The notes under the pieces were generated by a model, which ran no database searches, was not told where the DNA came from, and was given only the letters and a program-made list of their open reading frames with translations. A program made the position numbers and the translations under genes. Of a DNA stretch of 64,000 bases, positions 1,902 through 60,459 are shown piece by piece (the stretch's first letter is position 1; each line of letters opens with the position of its first letter). The DNA lies in the NCBI GenBank assembly GCA_036250195.1, contig JAVHZZ010000001.1, positions 397,298,117 through 397,362,116 of the forward strand, in the 5' to 3' direction. The stretch comes from Mixophyes australis (Eukaryota > Chordata > Amphibia > Anura > Limnodynastidae).

Positions 1902-2043
1902 CTGGAACATTTTCAGCCAATCTTGAAGGCCTGTGGGAGGTTGTACTGATGTAATTCGACGTCTTTGCTGACCTTGTCCATTTGCTGCCCTTAGGTCCCC
2001 AAATGTTGTAGGCGTTGCTGAACATGGCACAAGACCTGTAGTA
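1902..2043 (-). CDS. FBXW7: FBXW7 second common coding exon (start of the dimerisation-domain region)
   Basis: Internal coding exon of the substrate receptor of the SCF (SKP1-CUL1-F-box) ubiquitin ligase that targets cyclin E, MYC, NOTCH and JUN. On the minus strand the acceptor is TTATTTATAG and the donor CAG|GTACC. The exon is 142 nt. It begins with the third base of a serine codon left open by the previous exon and ends on a codon boundary. The 47 whole codons start TTGLVPCSATPTTFGDLRAA and end LQDWLKMFQ. They match human FBXW7 almost residue for residue; the one difference I see is Asp for human Glu in LQ(E/D)WLKMFQ. The segment has a basic run QQRRR. Human continues with the dimerisation domain and F-box in the next exon, which is not in the first 1.9 kb, so it lies outside the window to the left. 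Confidence 0.97.
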
Positions 2044-4745: not shown

Positions 4746-4828
4746 CTTGTGTACTCTGAGCCTTTGCAGGGTTTCTTTCCCAAAGAGAAAGAGCGGACCT
4801 CGGATCCATGGTCCAACTTTCTCTTCAT
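4746..4828 (-). CDS. FBXW7: FBXW7 first common coding exon (shared by alpha, beta and gamma isoforms)
   Basis: The exon to which all isoform-specific first exons of FBXW7 splice. On the minus strand the acceptor is TTTTATTTTCAG and the donor ACAAG|GTAATT. The length is 83 nt, giving 27 codons plus two bases that pair with the first base of the next exon to make serine. It opens in phase 0 with its own ATG: MKRKLDHGSEVRSF, then SLGKKPCKGSEYT. Human has Val where this has Gly (CKVSEYTS against CKGSEYTS); the rest matches. The KRK and GKK clusters are consistent with a role in nuclear import, which is inference. Because the exon begins with ATG, a transcript lacking a usable upstream start could in principle start here. 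A poly-T tract (minus sense, 4906-4924) lies about 80 nt before the acceptor. Confidence 0.97.
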
Positions 4829-7090
4829 CTGAAAATAAAAGGAAAAATAACATTTCATAAAACTGCTTTTAAAAAGAGAAAAAAAACCCACTATGAAAAG
4901 CTTGTAAAAAAAAAAAAAAAAAAAGTAGTATGAAGGACACTACAAAATAAATCACATTAATTCACAACACTGTGACAGGTGGATGGTTTACAAGTCACCA
5001 CAGCAGATTGCTCCATTTCACAATACAAAGAACCATTTAACACACAGTAACAGGAGAAACTTAGACTTCACCTAATGACAAGAGAAATTAATTTGGGGTG
5101 GGGTGGTGAGGATATCCTCCCAAATAGTTTAGTAACAAACATGTTAATCCATGTTTTTATTTTAAGAGAAAATTAAAAAACGCAAAACAAAACAAAAAAA
5201 AAAACAACCCACAGAATGCTATAGATGCAAAATATATTAATCTTTACTGAAAGCATAACATTATTCTCCCAGAAGCAGACTGTGGTCTTATTTTATTGGA
5301 AGCAGTAAGACAGTCCCCTCTACTGTACTATTGTTGTAACAACTACAGTGTACCTGTTGCTTTTTAATTTTGGCAATTCATATTAACTTATTTAATTCTA
5401 GAAACATACATAAAGATTCAGCCATGTGTAAAGGTGGCAACACGTTTACAAATTCAAGTATGAAATATTTTAAAGAAATCTGAAATTTGCATATCAAACG
5501 ACTTTAGAAGTAAAAATATATCAAAGCTGCCACAGTGAGGACTCATGTATAACCATGCATTTCCAACATATGGGACTTCTTCCAAAAAACAGTCTTTTAC
5601 AACCAGGTAGCCACATCATTCATTTTAGCATGAAGAAATAATTCACAAATAAGCTAGTTATTTCTTGCACATGTAACACATTAGGATATATCTTGCTCCT
5701 GACAGGAGGGTCTCCAAAGTCATTAATGTTGCAAGTCATTAAAACATAGATTTGTTCTGAACAACTACAGAGACTCATACAATATAAAATGCTTTATGTG
5801 TAGCAAATCGTTCACAATGATGTGGGGAGATGTAATTGCAAATACATGTTTTATGTTGAGTACTTTATGGAATCAGAGGTGCTTTTAGAATTAAAGAACA
5901 ATTGTGTCTACTGAGCTATACAAACACTAGAAGTCAAGAGCCAACGTTCTCTGAATCAAAATTTCGACCAGACTGGTCAGAAATATTGACTGCCAAACTT
6001 GTATTCTAGCTCAACAATTGCATTGTACGGGTAATGCAGACACATAATTTATAAAAGTAAATATAAAATGTACAATGTATTTGGTTTTGGATATTTTCAT
6101 TTATTTTATTAAAATGGAATGGTCCTGTAAAAGTTACTACATAGGTATCATTCCACTGGCAGACACTGGAAAACTGTGCAAGATTAACATTCAACACCAT
6201 GCTCTCCTGCCGGTTAACCTCCTGCTACAAAACCTGTAGAATGAAACTTATCAAAAAAACACATTTCAATGATCCAATAGCCACATCATATGTGAGACTG
6301 GTGCCAAGGAGAGGCACTGCCCATGCAGAGAAAGGCAGACCCCTCCAGTAACCCAGGAGGGGTCAATACACATACAAGTTATCACCCTTCTCTACAATCA
6401 CGGGGATAACATAAACCGAACATTCACTCTAGTCCAATCTTGAAATTCCTCACAACACAACATATGAGGCTATTCTCTACAATAAAGAGTTGCTAGCATG
6501 GGTGGCTTCAATAGCAGATTCATAAATGCAGACAATGCGTTAGTTTAACCTTGCCAGAAATCTTACCAGACTTGTGGGCAAATAGCTCGCGAAACGCTCC
6601 CATCCTGGAAGTCTACAATACTGCAAAGCCGCAGATGGCATTTTTAATAAGACGCAGTTTCCAAAATTCTGCTCATCTATTCAGATCTTGACTAATGTGA
6701 AGAGTCCTTGATACGGAGAAGTAGGATACTTCCACACCACGGTGAAAAATTTGATAAGTGGGATGCAGATGAAGGTGACCAGACGATAGAACAGAAGAGG
6801 AAAGCCAGCTCGAGCGGTCTAGGAATCTCATGCCAATATATGTGTGCTGATCTGCACTGGGAATGCCATCTGCAGATCCAGGAGGGGAGGATGCTGGGTC
6901 TGTCTAATCAAACACCATCTCATCACCTTATTCTGCATCCCCATTACCTCTCCCCTTCATCAGCTCCAATGCAGACTTTTCCCTTACTAATCGTTTGCAA
7001 AACCAAAAAAACAAGGGGTGTCTGCAGCCATCAGCGAAGCAGCCAGCATGTGTTTCACATCCACAGAGGACGCAACAAATCAGTACTTAC
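4829..7090 (-). other. FBXW7 intron between the beta exon and the first common exon
   Basis: 2,262 nt with GTAAGT donor and TTTTCAG acceptor. It contains A-rich tracts at 4906-4924 and 5170-5205 and two small back-to-back stems, GTGCC...GGCAC at 6301-6317 and GACCCCTCC...GGAGGGGTC at 6338-6364. No exon or mobile-element family was recognised. Confidence 0.8.
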
Positions 7091-7129
7091 TTTGTAAAAT
7101 ATCATTTTTAAAGTGCCGTAGAACCCCAT
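7091..7129 (-). CDS. FBXW7: FBXW7 beta-type first exon, surviving 13-codon coding end
   Basis: The last 13 codons before the donor AAA|GTAAGT read MGFYGTLKMIFYK. This is the end of the human beta-isoform leader as I recall it, and it joins in phase 0 to the ATG of the exon at 4746-4828. In human, beta has 87 beta-specific residues including a hydrophobic segment that places it at the ER. Here this 13-codon part is the only piece in frame with the splice. Reading upward in the same frame gives an unrelated peptide that reaches a stop about 130 nt further on. The annotated start is therefore the ATG at 7129, which has AAC before it and G at +4. The predicted product would have a 13-residue leader without a membrane segment. 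Whether this transcript is made is unknown; the donor and coding end are clear. Confidence 0.85.
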
Positions 7130-7181
7130 GTTTCCCGGTGCCTGTGTATCAGTATCTCTTTTATCAGTGGATGCTGGATGC

Positions 7182-7259
7182 CTAGACACTGCGTATGTTG
7201 CTTTGTGAAGAAAAGATCCCCTTTCCAGGTAGGTATGTCACAGAGTCTGATGTGGACAT
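7182..7259 (-). other. Upstream ORF of 25 codons in the beta first exon
   Basis: ATG at 7259 opens 25 codons (MSTSDSVTYLPGKG, a short tail, stop TAG at 7184-7182) in the part homologous to the human beta leader. The base at -3 is A (GAGCATG), a fair start context. It ends about 52 nt before the MGFYG start. If the beta transcript begins upstream of 7259, ribosomes would meet this frame first and it could lower translation of the short beta product. That regulatory effect is inference; the frame and its homology are seen directly. Confidence 0.5.
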
Positions 7260-7273
7260 GCTCGGACACGTCA
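7254..7273 (-). promoter_or_regulatory. Candidate p53 response element in the beta first exon
   Basis: Two adjacent decamers on the minus strand, TGACGTGTCC and GAGCATGTCC, with no spacer. Against the p53 half-site RRRCWWGYYY the second matches 10 of 10 and the first 8 of 10. It overlaps the ATG of the 25-codon upstream ORF. Human FBXW7 beta is known as a p53-induced transcript, reported to have its site within the beta first exon, which is the same place. The match was made by eye; binding is not shown. Confidence 0.55.
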
Positions 7274-7299
7274 AGAGAGGAAGAGAGCAGGCGGCTCAC

Positions 7300-7800
7300 A
7301 GCTCAAACTCCAGACAGCAGCGCAGAGCTTCCCAACACACAGCCAGGAGCCCCCGCTGAGAGCAACTCCAGGGACTGAGCACGGGGAGGGGATACCAGCT
7401 GGTAACCAGAGGGGGGGCAGCACGGAGCAGACCCTGTCAAACCCGCCGCTGCACTGATTTCTTCAAGCACCACACATGAGGGATCGGATTACATCTCCCC
7501 CTCCTGTAAGGAGCAGCAATGGTGCAGTCTGGGCTCAAGCTGTAGCTACACAGCCCACACATCAATTATATGGAGATTCAGGGAGCCTGTTAGCACAGAG
7601 CAGAGGGAGGGACAGGGGAGGGCTGAGCGCCGCAGAGATACCTCCATCTGCCTGGGGCAATTCCACTTTACCCTCCCCGGTATCAACAACGTGTACACTG
7701 TTCCTAACGCAGCTTTTCACAGAGATTAATAGCCGACGCGTCCCTCTGCTGGCAGCACTCAGTGCGCGACTCCCTCGGGGTATGTATCCCCAGCACTGCT
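7300..7800 (-). promoter_or_regulatory. Candidate FBXW7 beta promoter, GC- and CpG-richer than its surroundings
   Basis: This 0.5-kb stretch stands out from the AT-rich intron. It has many CpGs (for example around 7321, 7380-7450, 7628 and 7735-7780), G-runs and C-runs, and lies directly upstream, in minus sense, of the beta exon. No TATA box is evident. It is bounded upstream by the 31-bp minisatellite that starts at about 7819. Reading frames crossing it on either strand show no recognisable protein. The transcription start site is unknown. Confidence 0.45.
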
Positions 7801-7818
7801 TACTAGTAATGTATGGTG

Positions 7819-9067
7819 TAATACAGATAGTTACACACAGCGCCTGAGAGTAACACAGATGGTGCACACAGCGCCTGAGAGTAACACAGATGGTGCACAC
7901 AGCGCCTGAGAGTAACACAGATGGTGCACACAGCGCCTGAGAGTAACACAGATGGTGCACACAGCGCCTGAGAGTAACACAGATGGTGCACACAGCGCCT
8001 GAGAGTAACACAGATGGTGCACACACAGCGCCTGAGTGTAACACAGATGGTGCACACAGCGCCTGAGTGTAACACAGATGGTGCACACAGCGCCTGAGTG
8101 TAACACAGATGGTGCACACAGCGCCTGAGTGTAACACAGATGGTGCACACAGCGCCTGAGTGTAACACAGATGGTGCACACAGCGCCTGAGAGTAACACA
8201 GATGTTGCACACAGCGCCTGAGTGTAACACAGATGTTGCACACAGCGCCTGAGAGTAACACAGATGGTGCACACAGCGCCTGAGTGTAACACAGATGGTG
8301 CACACAGCGCCTGAGAGTAACACAGATAGTGCACACAGCGCCTGAGAGTAACACAGATGGTGCACACAGCGCCTGAGTGTAACACAGATGGTGCACACAG
8401 CGCCTGAGAGTAACACAGATGGTGCACACAGCGCCTGAGAGTAACACAGATGTTACACACAGCGCCTGAGAGTAACACAGATGTTACACACAGCGCCTCA
8501 GAGTAACACAGATGTTGCACACAGCGCCTCAGCGTAACACAGATGTTGCACACAGCGCCTCAGCGTAACACAGATGTTGCACACAGCGCCTGAGTGTAAC
8601 ACAGATGGTGCACACAGCGCCTGAGAGTAACACAGATGTTGCACACAGCGCCTCAGCGTAACACAGATGTTGCACACAGCGCCTCAGAGTAACACAGATG
8701 TTACACACAGCGCCTCAGAGTAACACAGATGTTGCACACAGCGCCTCAGAGTAACACAGATGTTACACACAGCGCCTCAGAGTAACACAGATGATGCACA
8801 CTACACACAATGCCTGGGCGTAATACAGATAGTGACACACAGCATCTGAGAGTAACACAGATGGTGCACACAGCACCTGAGAGTAACACAGATGGTGCAC
8901 ACAGCGCCTGAGAGCAACACAGATGGTGCACACAGCACCTGTGCGTAATAAAGAGGGTGCACTGAAGGGCCTGGGAGTAACAAAGATGGTGCACTGAAGG
9001 GTCTGGGAGTAACAAAGATGGTGCACTGAAGGGTCTGGGCGTAATACAGATTGTGCACACAGCACTT
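7819..9067. repeat. Minisatellite, 31-bp unit, about 40 copies
   Basis: The unit, on the plus strand, is AGCGCCTGAGAGTAACACAG followed by ATGGTGCACAC. Variable positions are GAGAG/GAGTG/CAGAG/CAGCG after GCGCCT, and GGTGC/GTTGC/GTTAC/AGTGC after GAT. Units near 7840-8200 are almost identical; units beyond about 8800 are diverged, with single substitutions and changed spacing (TGCACTGAAGGGTCTGGG versions at 8955-9040). One unit near 8025 has two extra bases. Because 31 is not a multiple of 3, all three minus-strand frames stay open for hundreds of bases with a 31-residue repeat; these are by-products, not genes. Most units carry a CAGATG E-box and a GCGC site. Confidence 0.97.
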
Positions 9068-12000
9068 GAGAGTTGTGTGTTTGATTGTGGTCAGCAGGGG
9101 CTACTGCTCTTTCAATCACTTGTCCAGCAGCCCTTTAGTCACTGTTCACATGTGCTTTCACTTACTGTGTCAATGACATACATGTGAGTTAGTGGTATAT
9201 GTAAGCAGAACACACATCTAAAAAGAGCCCAAAGTATCTGTGTCCCATTTCTCTGGAACACCAGTGTCAACATAGCATTGTGCTGGGACCCCAAAGGATG
9301 CAGTACATATCTAGCATCCATGGGCTAGGGGGCATCTACTACTCTGGGACTGTTCCATAGAGGGCTAGGTCACTGGGCTACCTACATTTTCTTTCCTTTT
9401 CCTTTAAAATGTTCCTAATAGGCTGCTCAACTGAGCTTCACCACCAGGGATAAAATTTGGCAGCCAGCCCCTGCAGTGATCCCCAAAACAGTCTGTGGGT
9501 CCCCACCATTGGGTTATGTAACTAATAAATATCTTCATATGCCAAACATGGAAAATGAGAATGTCAAAACATTATCTGTCCCTCAGGTGATGTATTTTAC
9601 TTCACGTTTATAAATAGAACTGAGAAATGATGGGCATGGTATAATAGGTTCCCTTTGGTGTTAATGAATATGATCTTGCTTATGGAGAATGAGGCTAAAG
9701 ACTCATTAAGCAAAATAATTACATTTACTAACTAATTACTTCATCAATAAATCACTGACTCTCATGGTAGCTGACATCTGCCTCTGAGAAGTCCAAAGTT
9801 TATAAAGCAGCAGCAGAATTAAAGAAAAAAAAAAAAAGAAGCTAAATATTTCTAACACTAATCAAATTAAAAGCCATTAAAGACATAGCATAATAGTGTG
9901 GTAACAAGTACTAATAATAAATAATAATATCAAGCATATCCCTTATGAAACTTTTCACATATAGATGACTGGTGTAATCTCACCTAACTTTATTAAGCAG
10001 GTACATCTGTGAGCAGTAGTTCATAGGAAAGAGCCAATTGTTAGCATCAAAGAATTGGAGATGGATGATTTGATATTGTGGTTTTACAATTCATTTATCT
10101 TAAGAAAAACATACCTAATTTCTACCATAAAAAAGTAAGAGCTTTGTGTTCTGCAAAACACATAAGCAGCATTGTGAATGGCTATTTATAATTTATTACT
10201 ATAAAACATTAGTAAACAATATCCCCTTGTGCTGGTTTAGTTGGCGATGAGCAGACTGGAGAGCTGGGTTAGGTATCGGCAAATTTGAAAGGAAACACGT
10301 GGGACCAGTACTATATGTTTTTAAGGTTGGAGATATACGCAAAATAAAAGAGTGTGAAATTTTACATGAATGCAAGCATATAATAAAATAACTTGCGCTA
10401 CATCTTTGAAAGTTGTAAAATTCTGACTTAATGACCACAGCTTTAAACACACAACAAAAACTACACAGCCTTCTCTTAAAGTGTAGATATAGCAAAACAC
10501 TCCCTTCATTCACAAGAATAAATGGGTATTTTCCAGTGATGTTATATCACTCTTACAGCAGCATCCACTAATCAACTTCTGAATGAATTTATGAGTAAAA
10601 TTAATTCTGACAATCATGTAAAGGTTTCACAGTACAGTTCATATATATCTCAAATATTTTAGGAGGTTTGGTTCCATTTAAAAGATCAAGGATGGAGACT
10701 ACACGCTGTGCAGCTTGTTTAGAATTTACCCAGCTATAGTGGTAATTTTTACCACATGTCGCTGGAGGCTGATAACCGAGACGTGATATATTTAAGCAAG
10801 CATCTTATCTTATAGACCACATTTACCACAAACAGAATATGCATTTAAATTGTTCGTGAAAGAGGCAAATGCAGAGTGAAAAAGAAAAATTTGCAGCTCC
10901 GTCAAGTTGTCATGATCATGAAATAAATGGGCTTTAACTAGAAGGGTGGGGTAATATCAGTTCCAGACAGGATCCTAACACAGCAGGTAGTTTGACATCA
11001 GAGAAGTTGATGTAATAAACAGCCACTGAATGCAATTATGGAGTTAGTTATATTATTAGCATAACAGTTTCTTAAACCATTGTATTACATCTGTGTGTGC
11101 CCTGGTAAAGGTGATATTGGGCAATTTAAGTTTTCTAATGTAACCAAACTTTCATTATTTCTATATAAACATGTCCACACATATATAATATCACAATTCA
11201 ATAGAGATAACATATAATACACTTGTAATGACACAGAATGTAAAGTGGCAGATCACCACATGATTTGGACTCTATAGATTTATCCGTGTGGAATTTCTTG
11301 TTCTGCTTATGTTTGCGCGAGGTTCCTCTCTGTGCTCCATTTTTGTCCCACAGTCCCAAAAAAACATACTGGTAGGGTAATTGGATCTGGCAAATGGACG
11401 TATGTGTGTGGGGCAGGGGGGGGGGGTGGCGGTGAGGGGAATTTAGATTGTAAGCTCCAACGGGGTAGACACTGGTGTGAGTGATTCAATATTCTGTGTA
11501 CAGCAACTGTGTAATATGACTGGCGCTATATAAACTGTAAGAAATAAAATAAATCTAGAAGGCACGGTAATAGTGGACTGTTCCATCCTGGTATTCAAGT
11601 ACTTAATCCACAAGTGTTAGCAAAATTAAATACTCAATATCTCAAGTTATATTGCTATTCATTATTCAAGCAAATGGCACTAGAAGAGACTGATTATTGG
11701 GGAAATGCCAAATTCATCTTAGTGTTTGTAAAGTGCCTTTCTCTATTTCCTATACACTAAACTGTTGCATCTTAGTATAGATGAAAATGTTTTATTTGTT
11801 TTCCTCTGGCAAGCTTATTCTAGCACCTTTAACAGTTTCTGGTGGTATACTATAATTAAGATAGTCTATTACCACCAAATGAAACACTGTATCAAATTAC
11901 ACACACAATCAACAGAAATGATTCTCCATTGAGGCATAAAGATTTCATAAAATAATGTGGAAAAATCATGAGTGAAAAAAACCTTAGCACTTCAATACGC

Positions 12001-33260: not shown

Positions 33261-34590
33261 GCCGCCCTAGTGACTATGTGGATGTGGCCTGTAACATCTA
33301 TGCTGCGCTCCTGCCGCCCTAGTGGCTATGAGGATGTGGCCTGTAACATATATGCTGCACTCCTGCCGCCCTAGTGGCTATGTGGATGTGGCCTGTAACA
33401 TCTATGCTGCGCTCCTGCCGCCCTAGTGGCTATGAGGATGTGGCCTGTAACATATATGCTGCGCTCCTGCCGCCCTAGTGGCTATGAGGATGTGGCCTGT
33501 AACATATATGCTGTGCTCCTGCCGCCCTAGTGGCTATGTGGCCTGTAACATATATGCTGTGCTCCTGTCGCCCTAGTGGCTATGAGGATGTGGCCTGTAA
33601 CATATATGCTGCGCTCCTGCCGCCCTAGTGGCTATGAGGATGTGGCCTGTAACATATAGGCTGTGCTCCTGCCGCCCTAATGGCTATGTGGCCTGTAACA
33701 TATATGCTGCGCTCCTGCCGCCCTAGTGGCTATGAGGATGTGGCCTGTAACATATATGCTGCGCTCCTGCCGCCCTAGTGGCTATGAGGATGTGGCCTGT
33801 AACATATATGCTGCGTTCCTGCCGCCCTAGTGGCTATGTGACCTGTAACATATATGCTGTGCTCCTGTCGCCCTAGTGGCTCTGAGGATGTGGCCTGTAA
33901 AATATATGCTGCGCTCCTGCCGCCCTAGAGGCTATGTGGATGTGGCCTGTAACATATATGCTGTGCTAGAGCCAACCTAGTGGCTATGAGGATGTGGCCT
34001 GTAACATATATGCTGCGCTCCTGCCGCCCTAGTGGCTATGAGGATATGGTCTATAACGTATAGGCTGTGCTCCTGTCGCCCTAGTGGCTATGTGGATGTG
34101 GCCTGTAACATATATGGTGTGCTCGTGCCGCCCTAGTGGCTATGAGGATGTGGCCTGTAACATATATGCTGCGCTCCTGCCGCCCTAGTGGCTATGAGGA
34201 TGTGGCCTGTAACATCTATGCTGCGCTCCTGCCGCCCTAGTGGCTATGAGGATGTGGCCTGTAACATCTATGCTGCGCTCCTGCCGCCCTAGTGGCTATG
34301 AGGATGTGGCCTGTAACATCTATGCTGCGCTCCTGCCGCCCTAGTGGCTATGAGGATGTGGCCTGTAACATCTATGCTGCGCTCCTGCCGCCCTAGTGGC
34401 TATGAGGATGTGGCCTGTAACATATATGCTGCGCTCCTGCCGCCCTAGTGGCTATGAGGATGTGGCCTGTAACATATATGCTGCGCTCCTGCCGCCCTAG
34501 TGGCTATGAGGATATGACCTATAACGCATAGACTGCGCTTCTGCCGCCCTAGTGGCTATGAGTATGTGGCCTGTAACATATATGTTGTAG
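33261..34590. repeat. Minisatellite, 52-bp unit, 26 copies, with a 46-bp variant
   Basis: The unit is GCCGCCCTAGTGGCTATGAG followed by GATGTGGCCTGTAACATATA and TGCTGCGCTCCT. Unit starts are 52 bp apart except at 33521-33567, 33671-33717 and 33821-33867, where a 6-base deletion (AGGATG) gives 46. These three fall at a regular 150-bp spacing. Units from about 34127 to 34491 are nearly identical. The left edge blends into TGCTGTGCTAGAGCC. Confidence 0.97.
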
Positions 34591-43366: not shown

Positions 43367-45787
43367 TTGACCTCCCACATGCCTCCACCATTACATCACT
43401 GCCCCTTGCAAATGTGCTCTCACTATCATAATCATACCAGTGGGCTGCCTCCCACAAGATCACACTGACCTCCCACATGCCTCCACCATTACATCACTGC
43501 CCCTTGCAGATGTGCTCTCACTATCATATTCATACCAGTGGGCTGCCTCCCACAAGATCACACTGACCTCCCACATGCCTCCACCATTACATCACTGCCC
43601 CTTACAGATGTGCTCTCTCTATCATAATCATACCAGTGGGCTGCCTCCCACAAGATCACACTGACCTCCCACATGCCTCCACCATTACATCACTGCCCCT
43701 TGCAGATGTGCTCTATCATAATCATACCAGTGGGCTGCCTCCCACAAGATCACACTGACCTCCCACATGCCTCCACCATTACATCACTGCCCCTTGCAGA
43801 TGTGCTCTCACTATCATAATCATACCAGTGGGCTGCCTCCCACAAGATCACACTGACCTCCCACATGCCTCCACCATTACATTACTGCCCCTTGCAGATG
43901 TGCTCTCACTATCATAATCATACCAGTGGGCTGCCTCCCACAAGATCACACTGACCTCCCACATGCCTCCACAATTACATCACTGCCCCTTGCAGATGTG
44001 CTCTATCATAATCATACCAGTGGGCTGCCTCCCACAAGATCACACTGACCTCCCACATGCCTCCACCATTACATTACTGCCCCTTGCAGATGTGCTCTCA
44101 CTATCATAATCATACCGGTGGGCTGCCTCCCACAAGATCACACTGACCTCCCACATGCCTCCACCATTACATCACTGCCCCTTGCAGATGTGCTCTCACA
44201 ATCATAATCATACCAGTGGGCTGCCTCCCACAAGATCACACTGACCTCCCACATGCCTCCACCATTACATCACTGCCCCTTGCAGATGTGCTCTATCATA
44301 ATCATACCAGTGGGCTGCCTCCCACAAGATCACACTGACCTCCCACATGCCTCCACCATTACATCACTGCCCCTTGCAGATGTGCTCTCACTATCATACC
44401 AGTGGGCTGCCTCCCACAAGATCACACTGACCTCCCACATGCCTCCACCATTACATCACTGCCCTTTGCAGATGTGCTCTCACTATCATAATCATACCAG
44501 TGGGCTGCCTCCCACAAGATCACACTGACCTCCCACATGCCTCCACCATTACATCACTGCCCCTTGCAGATGTGCTCTATCATAATCATACCAGTGGGCT
44601 GCCTCCCACAAGATCACACCGACCTCCCACATGCCTCCACCATTACATCACTGCCCCTTGCAGATGTGCTCTATCAATCATACCAGTGGGCTGCCTCCCA
44701 CAAGATCACACGGACCTCCCACATGCCTCCACCATTACATCACTGCCCCTTACAGATGTGCTCTCACTATCATAATCATACCGGTGGGCTGCCTCCCACA
44801 AGATCACACTGACCTCCCACATGCCTCCACCATTACATCACTGCCCCTTGCAGATTTGCTCTCACTATCATAATCATACCAGTGGGCTGCCTCCCACAAG
44901 ATCACACCGACCTCCCACATGCCTCCACCATTACATCACTGCCCCTTGCAGATGTGCTCTCACTATCATAATCATACCAGTGGGCTGCCTCCCACAAGAT
45001 CACACTGACCTCCCACATGCCTCCACCATTACATCACTGCCCCTTGCAGATGTGCTCTATCATAATCATACCAGTGGGCTGCCTCCCACAAGATCACACC
45101 GACCTCCCACATGCCTCCACCATTACATCACTGCCCCTTGCAGATGTGCTCTCACTATCATAATCATACCAGTGGGCTGCCTCCCACAAGATCACACTGA
45201 CCTCCCACATGCCTCCACCATTACATCACTGCCCCTTGCAGATGTGCTCTCACTATCATAATCATACCAGTGGGCTGCCTCCCACAAGATCACACTGACC
45301 TCCCACATGCCTCCACCATTACATCACTGCCCCTTGCAGATGTGCTCTATCATAATCATACCAGTGGGCTGCCTCCCACAAGATCACACCGACCTCCCAC
45401 ATGCCTCCACCATTACATCACTGCCCCTTGCAGATGTGCTCTCACTATCATAATCATACCAGTGGGCTGCCTCCCACAAGATCACACTGACCTCCCACAT
45501 GCCTCCACCATTACATCACTGCCCCTTACAGATGTGCTCTCACTATCATAATCATACCAGTGGGCTGCCTCCCACAAGATCACACTGACCTCCCACATGC
45601 CTCCACAATTACATCACTGCCCCTTGCAGATGTGCTCTATCATAATCATACCAGTGGGCTGCCTCCCACAAGATCACACTGACCTCCCACATGCCTCCAC
45701 CATTACATCACTGCCCCTTGCAGATTTGCTCTCACCATCATAATCATACCAGTGGGCTGCCTCCCACAAGATCACACTGACCTCCCA
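43367..45787. repeat. Minisatellite, 98-bp unit, 25 copies, with trimeric higher-order structure
   Basis: The unit begins CTGACCTCCCACATGCCTCC, continues ACCATTACATCACTGCCCCT and TGCAGATGTGCTCTCACTAT, and ends with CCAGTGGGCTGCCTCCCACA and AGATCACA. Measured unit lengths from left to right are 98,98,98,94,98,98,94,98,98,94,92,98,94,92,98,98,98,94,98,98,94,98,98,94,98. The 94-bp form lacks CACT after GCTCT. The right edge is abrupt at CTGACCTCCCAAAATG. Open frames across it are repeat by-products. Confidence 0.97.
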
Positions 45788-60312: not shown

Positions 60313-60459
60313 ACGTCTACGGCAAAAAGGCAGGCCATGGGCGATGATGCTAATGCAGAAGGTCTTCATCACAGTTTGGGGTGGCAATCTTTCTTTAACA
60401 CTTGTAAGATCGATGGGGACCAAATCATAGTTTAGGGAAGCTTTTTCAGACTTGGACAT
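60313..60459 (-). CDS. FBXW7: FBXW7 gamma-isoform first coding exon
   Basis: Encodes 49 residues that begin MSKSEKASLNYDLVPIDL and end SIIAHGLPFCRRR, then a perfect donor CGT|GTAAGT. The human gamma leader is also 49 residues and has the same frame (MSKPGK..., LVPVDL, QTVMK, SIISIIAxGLPFCRRR-like end). Splicing in phase 0 to the ATG at 4828 makes the junction CRRR-MKRK, a basic cluster. In human, gamma is the nucleolar and muscle-enriched isoform. The start ATG at 60459 has A at -3. An in-frame ATG at 60492 would add 11 residues (MLASENHCETR), but its context is weaker and human starts at MSK. The open frame continues upstream to a TGA near 60576. The intron to the common exon is 55.5 kb. Confidence 0.95.

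What the first reader, a model, noticed from the sequence alone, without database searches (positions are those of the whole stretch)
7091..7320. The FBXW7 beta leader is broken: conserved pieces, two stops and a frame change
Seen: MGFYGTLKMIFYK is intact at the donor and SLPLLTCPSMSTSDSVTYLP is recognisable upstream. The upstream piece is enclosed by TGA (7298-7296) and TAG (7184-7182), and it is 130 nt from the MGFYG start where human has 117. Known: human beta uses this leader, with a hydrophobic segment, to sit at the ER. Inference: this species cannot make an ER-anchored beta, and the beta transcript would give a short 13-residue leader behind a 25-codon upstream ORF. An isoform-specific loss with the promoter and splice site kept would be a real evolutionary change.
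Basis: partly seen in the sequence, partly recalled or inferred. Interest (0 to 1): 0.8.

Follow-up and report, generated by a model that had tools for sequence, protein, structure and literature searches.

The report
Frog FBXW7 beta has short leader
The apparently broken start of one form of a frog's FBXW7 protein looks like the normal short start already known in frogs and fish, and the conserved stretch before it is better explained as a DNA control site, probably for p53, than as the wreck of a lost protein segment.

Summary
The loss reading does not hold. A 2010 X. laevis paper cloned beta from MGFYG and called it 'slightly truncated'. A 2012 zebrafish paper says fish and frog beta exons lack the mammalian hydrophobic segment. 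Of 33 cluster representatives carrying this exon, 27 start at MGFYG, including a frog, teleosts and a shark. The mammalian membrane segment appears in two (one a read-through); a duck has 46 residues without it. The short leader is most simply ancestral, the membrane anchor derived.

The conserved piece is a sharp 75-nt block (18/25 residues against bat; 1/26 and 0/9 in the flanks). It crosses the frog uORF start without a clear drop, so peptide selection explains it poorly. It contains a p53-response-element-like site (7273-7254, 2 mismatches in 20). Its perfect half-site GAGCATGTCC is identical in published human and mouse letters, and reviews report a functional p53 site in this human exon. 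The CATG core is also the frog uORF start codon. Not excluded: loss in frogs of a duck-like non-membrane extension.

The parts
7091..7129 (-). Coding leader of FBXW7 beta: MGFYGTLKMIFYK (13 codons), A at -3 and G at +4 of the ATG
   Evidence: 5 of 5 codon differences against published X. laevis and zebrafish primer letters are synonymous, and 2 of 2 against human shRNA letters; the letters cover only part of the 39 nt each
7085..7090 (-). Splice donor GTAAGT
7182..7259 (-). Upstream ORF MSTSDSVTYLPGKGIFSSQSNIRSV plus TAG stop (25 codons), A at -3; 52 nt between its stop and the beta ATG
7212..7286 (-). Conserved 75-nt block: 18 of 25 residues identical to bat beta residues 27-51; flanks 1 of 26 and 0 of 9
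7254..7273 (-). p53-response-element-like site TGACGTGTCC GAGCATGTCC (2 + 0 mismatches to RRRCWWGYYY, no spacer); CATG core = uORF start codon
   Evidence: second half-site identical in human and mouse letters
7296..7298 (-). TGA that closes the conserved frame upstream; no in-frame ATG between it and 7259
4746..4828 (-). FBXW7 shared exon 2 (MKRKLDHGSEVRSFSLGKKPCKGSEYT..)
   Evidence: boundaries read from the sequence
1902..2043 (-). FBXW7 shared exon 3
   Evidence: boundaries read from the sequence
60313..60459 (-). FBXW7 gamma first exon, intact 49-codon ORF followed by a GTAAGT donor

Best explanation
This is an ordinary frog FBXW7 beta first exon. It makes a beta protein of about 553 residues with the bare 13-residue leader MGFYGTLKMIFYK and no membrane anchor (read directly from the sequence; the same start was cloned in X. 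laevis). The upstream piece that resembles the human leader is 5' untranslated sequence. It holds a conserved DNA control element, most likely a p53 response element at 7273-7254 that drives beta transcription after DNA damage (inferred from the motif, its position and reports on the human exon; binding not shown here). The CATG core of that element also supplies an upstream start codon, so the frog transcript carries a 25-codon uORF that should lower or condition beta translation (inferred). In amniotes the same stretch lies in frame with MGFYG, and in mammals an upstream start and hydrophobic segment were added, so a regulatory element became coding sequence of an ER-anchored protein (inferred by parsimony).
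For: X. laevis beta called 'slightly truncated', predicted 62 kDa, full-length coding sequence amplified from ATGGGCTTCTACGGCAC, endogenous protein detected by antibody. 98% identity in aligned regions but 86% overall to human beta, as a 13-residue leader would give. [quoted passage not shown] 27 of 33 cluster representatives carrying the exon start at MGFYG, among them frog P0004 (553 aa, 85 members), teleosts and basking shark P0032. 7 of 7 codon differences in MGFYG..FYK (1 Xenopus, 4 zebrafish, 2 human) are synonymous. The conserved block crosses the uORF ATG without a clear drop: 7/9 identical residues before it, where no in-frame AUG exists, and 11/16 from it on. p53-like site in the block: 8 of 5000 shuffles and 11 of 12755 other, overlapping 75-nt windows do as well. 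GAGCATGTCC identical in frog, human and mouse, while 2 of 3 human-frog differences over 21 nt change the amino acid. Reviews: functional p53 site in human exon 1b / beta first exon.
Against: No frog expression, ChIP or ribosome data were available. p53 sites of this quality are common genome-wide (2 found, 2.57 expected in the window). Only 20 of the 75 conserved nt are explained by the p53 site; SVTYLPxKG is not. The original p53 paper is not held, so I could not confirm that its site is this one, and I looked for p53 because I recalled that paper. A duck protein carries the SVTYLP piece in frame, so part of the longer frame could be older than amniotes. One breast-tumour study found no association of human beta expression with p53 status. 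Leader starts in the database are mostly automatic predictions, and the third search drew its words from the 13-residue leader and exon 2, so 27 of 33 is not an unbiased sample.
Confidence: 0.75

Rival explanations
1. Partial loss: the tetrapod ancestor had a duck-like in-frame extension (MSxxxxVTYLPxKGLY..MGFYG, no membrane segment), and the frog line lost it by a frame change; the block is its remnant.
For: Duck P0003 and bat P0001 share the in-frame extension (63% over 46 residues) and the frog matches its first 16 residues (9 of 16).
Against: Fish and shark leaders are bare apart from unrelated extensions in three fish predictions, so this needs an extra gain and loss. The frame break is not recent, since X. 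laevis and Pseudophryne leaders are also 13 residues, yet the block has not decayed, so something other than the long frame preserves it.
Confidence: 0.15
2. The uORF peptide itself is selected: MSTSDSVTYLPGKG acts as a regulatory upstream peptide in frogs and was later fused to the protein in amniotes.
For: 11 of 16 residues are conserved from the uORF start against bat; the start has A at -3.
Against: Conservation does not begin at the start codon (7 of 9 before it). Published letters reach only 4 codons into the uORF: the human-frog difference there (TTA to TCA) changes the residue; mouse-frog shows that one and one synonymous change.
Confidence: 0.12
3. Assembly or sequencing error broke a continuous leader.
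For: A frame change between two conserved pieces is a classic error signature, and a 31-bp, 40-copy tandem array lies just upstream (7818-9073).
Against: Other frogs give the same 13-residue start from independent data. The hydrophobic part has no detectable counterpart (1 of 26 identical; in the 400 nt upstream, three frames, 80 of 500 shuffles score as well), which a small indel cannot explain.
Confidence: 0.03
4. An unseen upstream exon splices into the open MGFYG frame (7237-7091) and supplies a hydrophobic leader.
For: The MGFYG frame is open back to 7237, so a splice acceptor inside it would be compatible.
Against: No amphibian protein of this kind appears among the 33. The own-genome search for the mammalian hydrophobic leader did not complete, so absence is tested in the window only.
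Confidence: 0.04

Closest known systems
X. laevis xCdc4 beta (Almeida 2010, PMC2819241)
   Same: Beta isoform starting at MGFYG and spliced to shared exons 2-11; truncated relative to human
   Different: GGC against GGG at codon 2; the passages I read do not discuss the upstream block, a uORF or p53 control
Zebrafish fbxw7 beta (Snyder 2012, PMC3404928)
   Same: Beta exon without a hydrophobic segment; the TLKMIFYK codons at the donor differ only synonymously (4 of 4)
   Different: Upstream sequence of the zebrafish exon not seen here
Mammalian FBXW7 beta (P0001, bat representative, 627 aa)
   Same: MGFYGTLKMIFYK and residues 27-51 recognisable
   Different: 87-residue in-frame leader with a hydrophobic segment (best 19-mer mean 2.47); reported at the ER membrane (review passage)
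Duck FBXW7 beta (P0003, 586 aa)
   Same: MSxxxxVTYLPxKG piece and MGFYG
   Different: The pieces are in one frame; no hydrophobic segment (best 19-mer mean -0.15)
p53 site of human FBXW7 exon 1b (Kimura 2003, known only through reviews)
   Same: Same exon; half-site GAGCATGTCC present in human letters
   Different: Identity of the reported site with this one not confirmed; function in frogs untested

Membership tests
FBXW7 beta first exon | MGFYGTLKMIFYK ending at a splice donor, in phase with exon 2 (MKRKLD..) | tested here: met
FBXW7 beta first exon | Lies between the gamma exon and exon 2 on the same strand, in a gene whose shared exons are present | tested here: met
ER-anchored (mammalian) FBXW7 beta | In-frame N-terminal hydrophobic segment | tested here: not met
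   TGA at 7298-7296; no detectable hydrophobic counterpart in the 400 nt upstream
ER-anchored (mammalian) FBXW7 beta | ER-membrane localisation | not testable with these tools
   needs cell work
p53 response element | Two RRRCWWGYYY half-sites, C/G cores intact, spacer 0-13 (definition recalled) | tested here: met
   0 + 2 mismatches, cores intact, spacer 0
p53 response element | Conserved in orthologous position | tested here: inconclusive
   Second half-site identical in human and mouse letters; first half-site only partly covered by published letters
p53 response element | Bound by p53 and mediates induction | not testable with these tools
   reviews report it for the human exon; no frog data
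Selected uORF peptide | Conservation confined to the ORF, with a synonymous bias | tested here: inconclusive
   conservation extends upstream of the ATG; too few DNA letters for a codon test

The most novel reading that the evidence does not exclude
A p53 response element in the beta first exon, conserved from frogs to mammals, carries its own start codon: the CATG core of its second half-site is the uORF start in frogs, the likely start of beta in ducks and Met36 in mammals. The ER-anchored mammalian beta leader would then be a regulatory DNA element turned into coding sequence, and in frogs p53 would induce a beta mRNA that is held back by a uORF made from the same element.
Probability: 0.4. 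Interest if true: 0.55.

Novelty: already known. Interest (0 to 1): 0.33.

Why it matters
It removes a claimed isoform loss and sets the direction of change: the membrane anchor of FBXW7 beta looks derived in mammals, so ER functions assigned to beta in mammals should not be assumed in frogs or fish. If the p53 reading holds, this exon is a compact, testable case of a transcription-factor site that doubles as a start codon and was later taken into a protein.

Tried and rejected
Rejected: chance resemblance. Rejected: pseudogene or duplicate copy of the exon, since it gave one match in the genome in a gene whose shared part is covered. Rejected: RNA structure as the reason for the block (210-nt fold z = 0.78, 155 of 200 shuffles fold at least as well; no Rfam match at gathering score). 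A possible third half-site (TGACATACCT, 13 nt on, 2 mismatches) is too weak to claim. No paper in the library prints the leader strings that I searched. The duck-leader search added no new protein (3 of 4 candidates reported, all known). Searches for the p53 site's letters found the tau paper (passages read) and two miR-223 papers seen as listing only. Statements about what is in print rest on searches; Kimura 2003, Welcker 2004, Matsumoto 2006 and 2011 were not read.

Limits: the protein database is clustered at 90%, so species inside a cluster are not visible; P0004's 85 and P0001's 290 members were not listed. Four of the ten shared-exon matches contain a stop; when refitted with P0004 the exon stretches on these loci showed none, so I take the stops as overrun into introns (for exon 2 this was read from the window). 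No other vertebrate's genomic DNA was available.

Full report
What is there. The finding lies in FBXW7 on the minus strand. Splice sites fit: GTAAGT after the beta leader and after gamma, TTTTCAG before exon 2. In the whole genome, ten matches on one contig cover bat beta residues 83-627, and the refitted exon stretches are open. The beta exon gave a single match. Its shared part is closest to frog P0004 (Pseudophryne; 507 of 513 residues), with three named frogs at 501-506, a caecilian and a turtle at 505, duck and bat at 504. Three markers favour a frog: KVWNPETE is in P0004 alone of 117 proteins; RRKVLKPGF is in P0004, three other named frogs, one unnamed protein and one fish; PCKGSEYT is in 10 of 117, which are amphibians, two unnamed proteins and a lungfish.

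The observation. The similarity is real: 43.1 bits against a best of 25.0 bits in 100 shuffled windows. It is confined to a block. Against bat beta, residues 27-51 are 18 of 25 identical, while residues 1-26 (the hydrophobic part) are 1 of 26 and residues 52-60 are 0 of 9. Allowing gaps and three frames does not rescue the hydrophobic part (80 of 500 shuffles score as well) or the linker (398 of 500 for bat, 463 of 500 for duck).

Is it a loss? Two papers answer this. Almeida 2010 (PMC2819241; sections 5 and 13 and passages read) isolated X. laevis beta by RACE, called it 'slightly truncated', gave 62 kDa and used ATGGGCTTCTACGGCAC as the start of the full-length coding sequence. That is MGFYGT, the same start as here. 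Their 98% identity in aligned regions against 86% overall fits a leader shorter by about 74 of 627 residues. Snyder 2012 (PMC3404928; section 5 and passages read) states that the zebrafish beta exon, like that of frogs, lacks the hydrophobic transmembrane segment of mammals. The protein database agrees: of 117 cluster representatives collected by three searches, 33 carry the exon, and 27 of these begin exactly at MGFYG, including frog P0004, teleosts and basking shark P0032. The six others are a mammalian-type leader of 87 residues (P0001, bat), a bat alpha-beta read-through (P0002), duck (46 residues, P0003), and three fish predictions with unrelated upstream residues, one of them with a hydrophobic insert after the leader (P0005, P0015, P0030). 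A short leader in shark, teleosts and frogs makes the long mammalian leader the derived state by parsimony. The amniote in-frame extension may be one step older than the membrane segment, since duck has the former without the latter. The duck is the only sauropsid beta seen, so this step rests on one cluster.

Coding constraint sits on the 13-residue leader. Against published Xenopus, zebrafish and human letters, 7 of 7 codon differences are synonymous (1, 4 and 2).

Why is the upstream block kept? If it were a dead leader it should have decayed, because the short start is shared with other frogs and so is not recent. Conservation does not start at the uORF ATG: 7 of 9 residues before it are identical although the frame has no AUG there, and 11 of 16 from it on. 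That points to the DNA. The block contains TGACGTGTCC GAGCATGTCC at 7273-7254, a p53-type double half-site with 2 and 0 mismatches and intact cores. In the whole window such sites are no more frequent than chance (2 found, 2.57 expected), but one in this block is unusual: 8 of 5000 shuffles of the block and 11 of 12755 other, overlapping 75-nt windows. I looked for p53 because I recalled that human exon 1b is a p53 target. Three reviews (passages read) state that p53 activates beta or FBW7 through a site in this first exon, citing Kimura 2003, which is not held. A 2025 paper (PMC12648003; passages read) prints human and mouse letters from exactly this place. GAGCATGTCC is identical in human, mouse and this frog. 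Over 21 human nt there are 3 differences, 2 of which change the amino acid while none falls in the perfect half-site, and the two in the first half-site keep its pyrimidines. The CATG core of the half-site is the frog uORF ATG and mammalian Met36; that the duck start is the same is inferred.

How it most likely works. Shown: reading frames, splice sites, the short leader, block and motif. Supported by relatives: the protein made is the short beta. Inferred: p53 drives this promoter in frogs; the 25-codon uORF, 52 nt before the beta start, tempers translation, with the beta ATG (A at -3, G at +4) reached by leaky scanning or reinitiation. Frog beta would then be a soluble isoform. Reported ER residence of mammalian beta (review passage) would not apply.

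What stays open. The p53 site explains 20 of 75 conserved nt; SVTYLPxKG is unexplained and may be another site or a selected uORF. A study of breast tumours found no link of beta expression with p53 status (passage). No RNA fold explains the block. The genome-wide search for a hydrophobic leader exon did not complete. Loss of a duck-like, non-membrane extension in the frog line cannot be excluded without other amphibian and lobe-finned fish DNA.

Verdict. Observation confirmed; loss interpretation not supported; the short frog leader is already in print. The residual interest is the embedded p53-like site whose core is a start codon.

Noticed in passing
window 60313-60459 (-): An intact FBXW7 gamma first exon (49 codons, 71% identical to recalled human gamma) with a GTAAGT donor. 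Almeida 2010 reported no gamma transcript in X. laevis embryos and no gamma exon in silico, so the exon is present in at least this genome; a lungfish protein (P0106) has a similar leader.
   Followed up: partly
window 7818-9073: A 31-bp tandem repeat, 40 copies, 91% matches, begins about 690 nt upstream of the beta start codon, next to the presumed beta promoter.
   Followed up: no
window 33261-34584 and 43368-45787: Two further large tandem arrays between the gamma and beta exons: 52-bp unit, 26 copies; 98-bp unit, 25 copies with strong GC skew.
   Followed up: no
G000:C5:226915008-226915163 (L008): A stretch 96% identical to the last 52 residues of FBXW7 with no stops on another contig, perhaps a processed fragment or a recent paralogue piece.
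   Followed up: no
G000:C9:128608139-128609089 (L004): A long open frame (511 aa) 36% identical to the FBXW7 WD40 region; perhaps one of the Fbxw7-like genes described in X. tropicalis (PMC4556705 passages).
   Followed up: no
P0030 (Scleropages formosus): Predicted fish beta with a strongly hydrophobic stretch between the MGFYG leader and exon 2; probably a predicted intron read-through, but could be an independent membrane leader.
   Followed up: no
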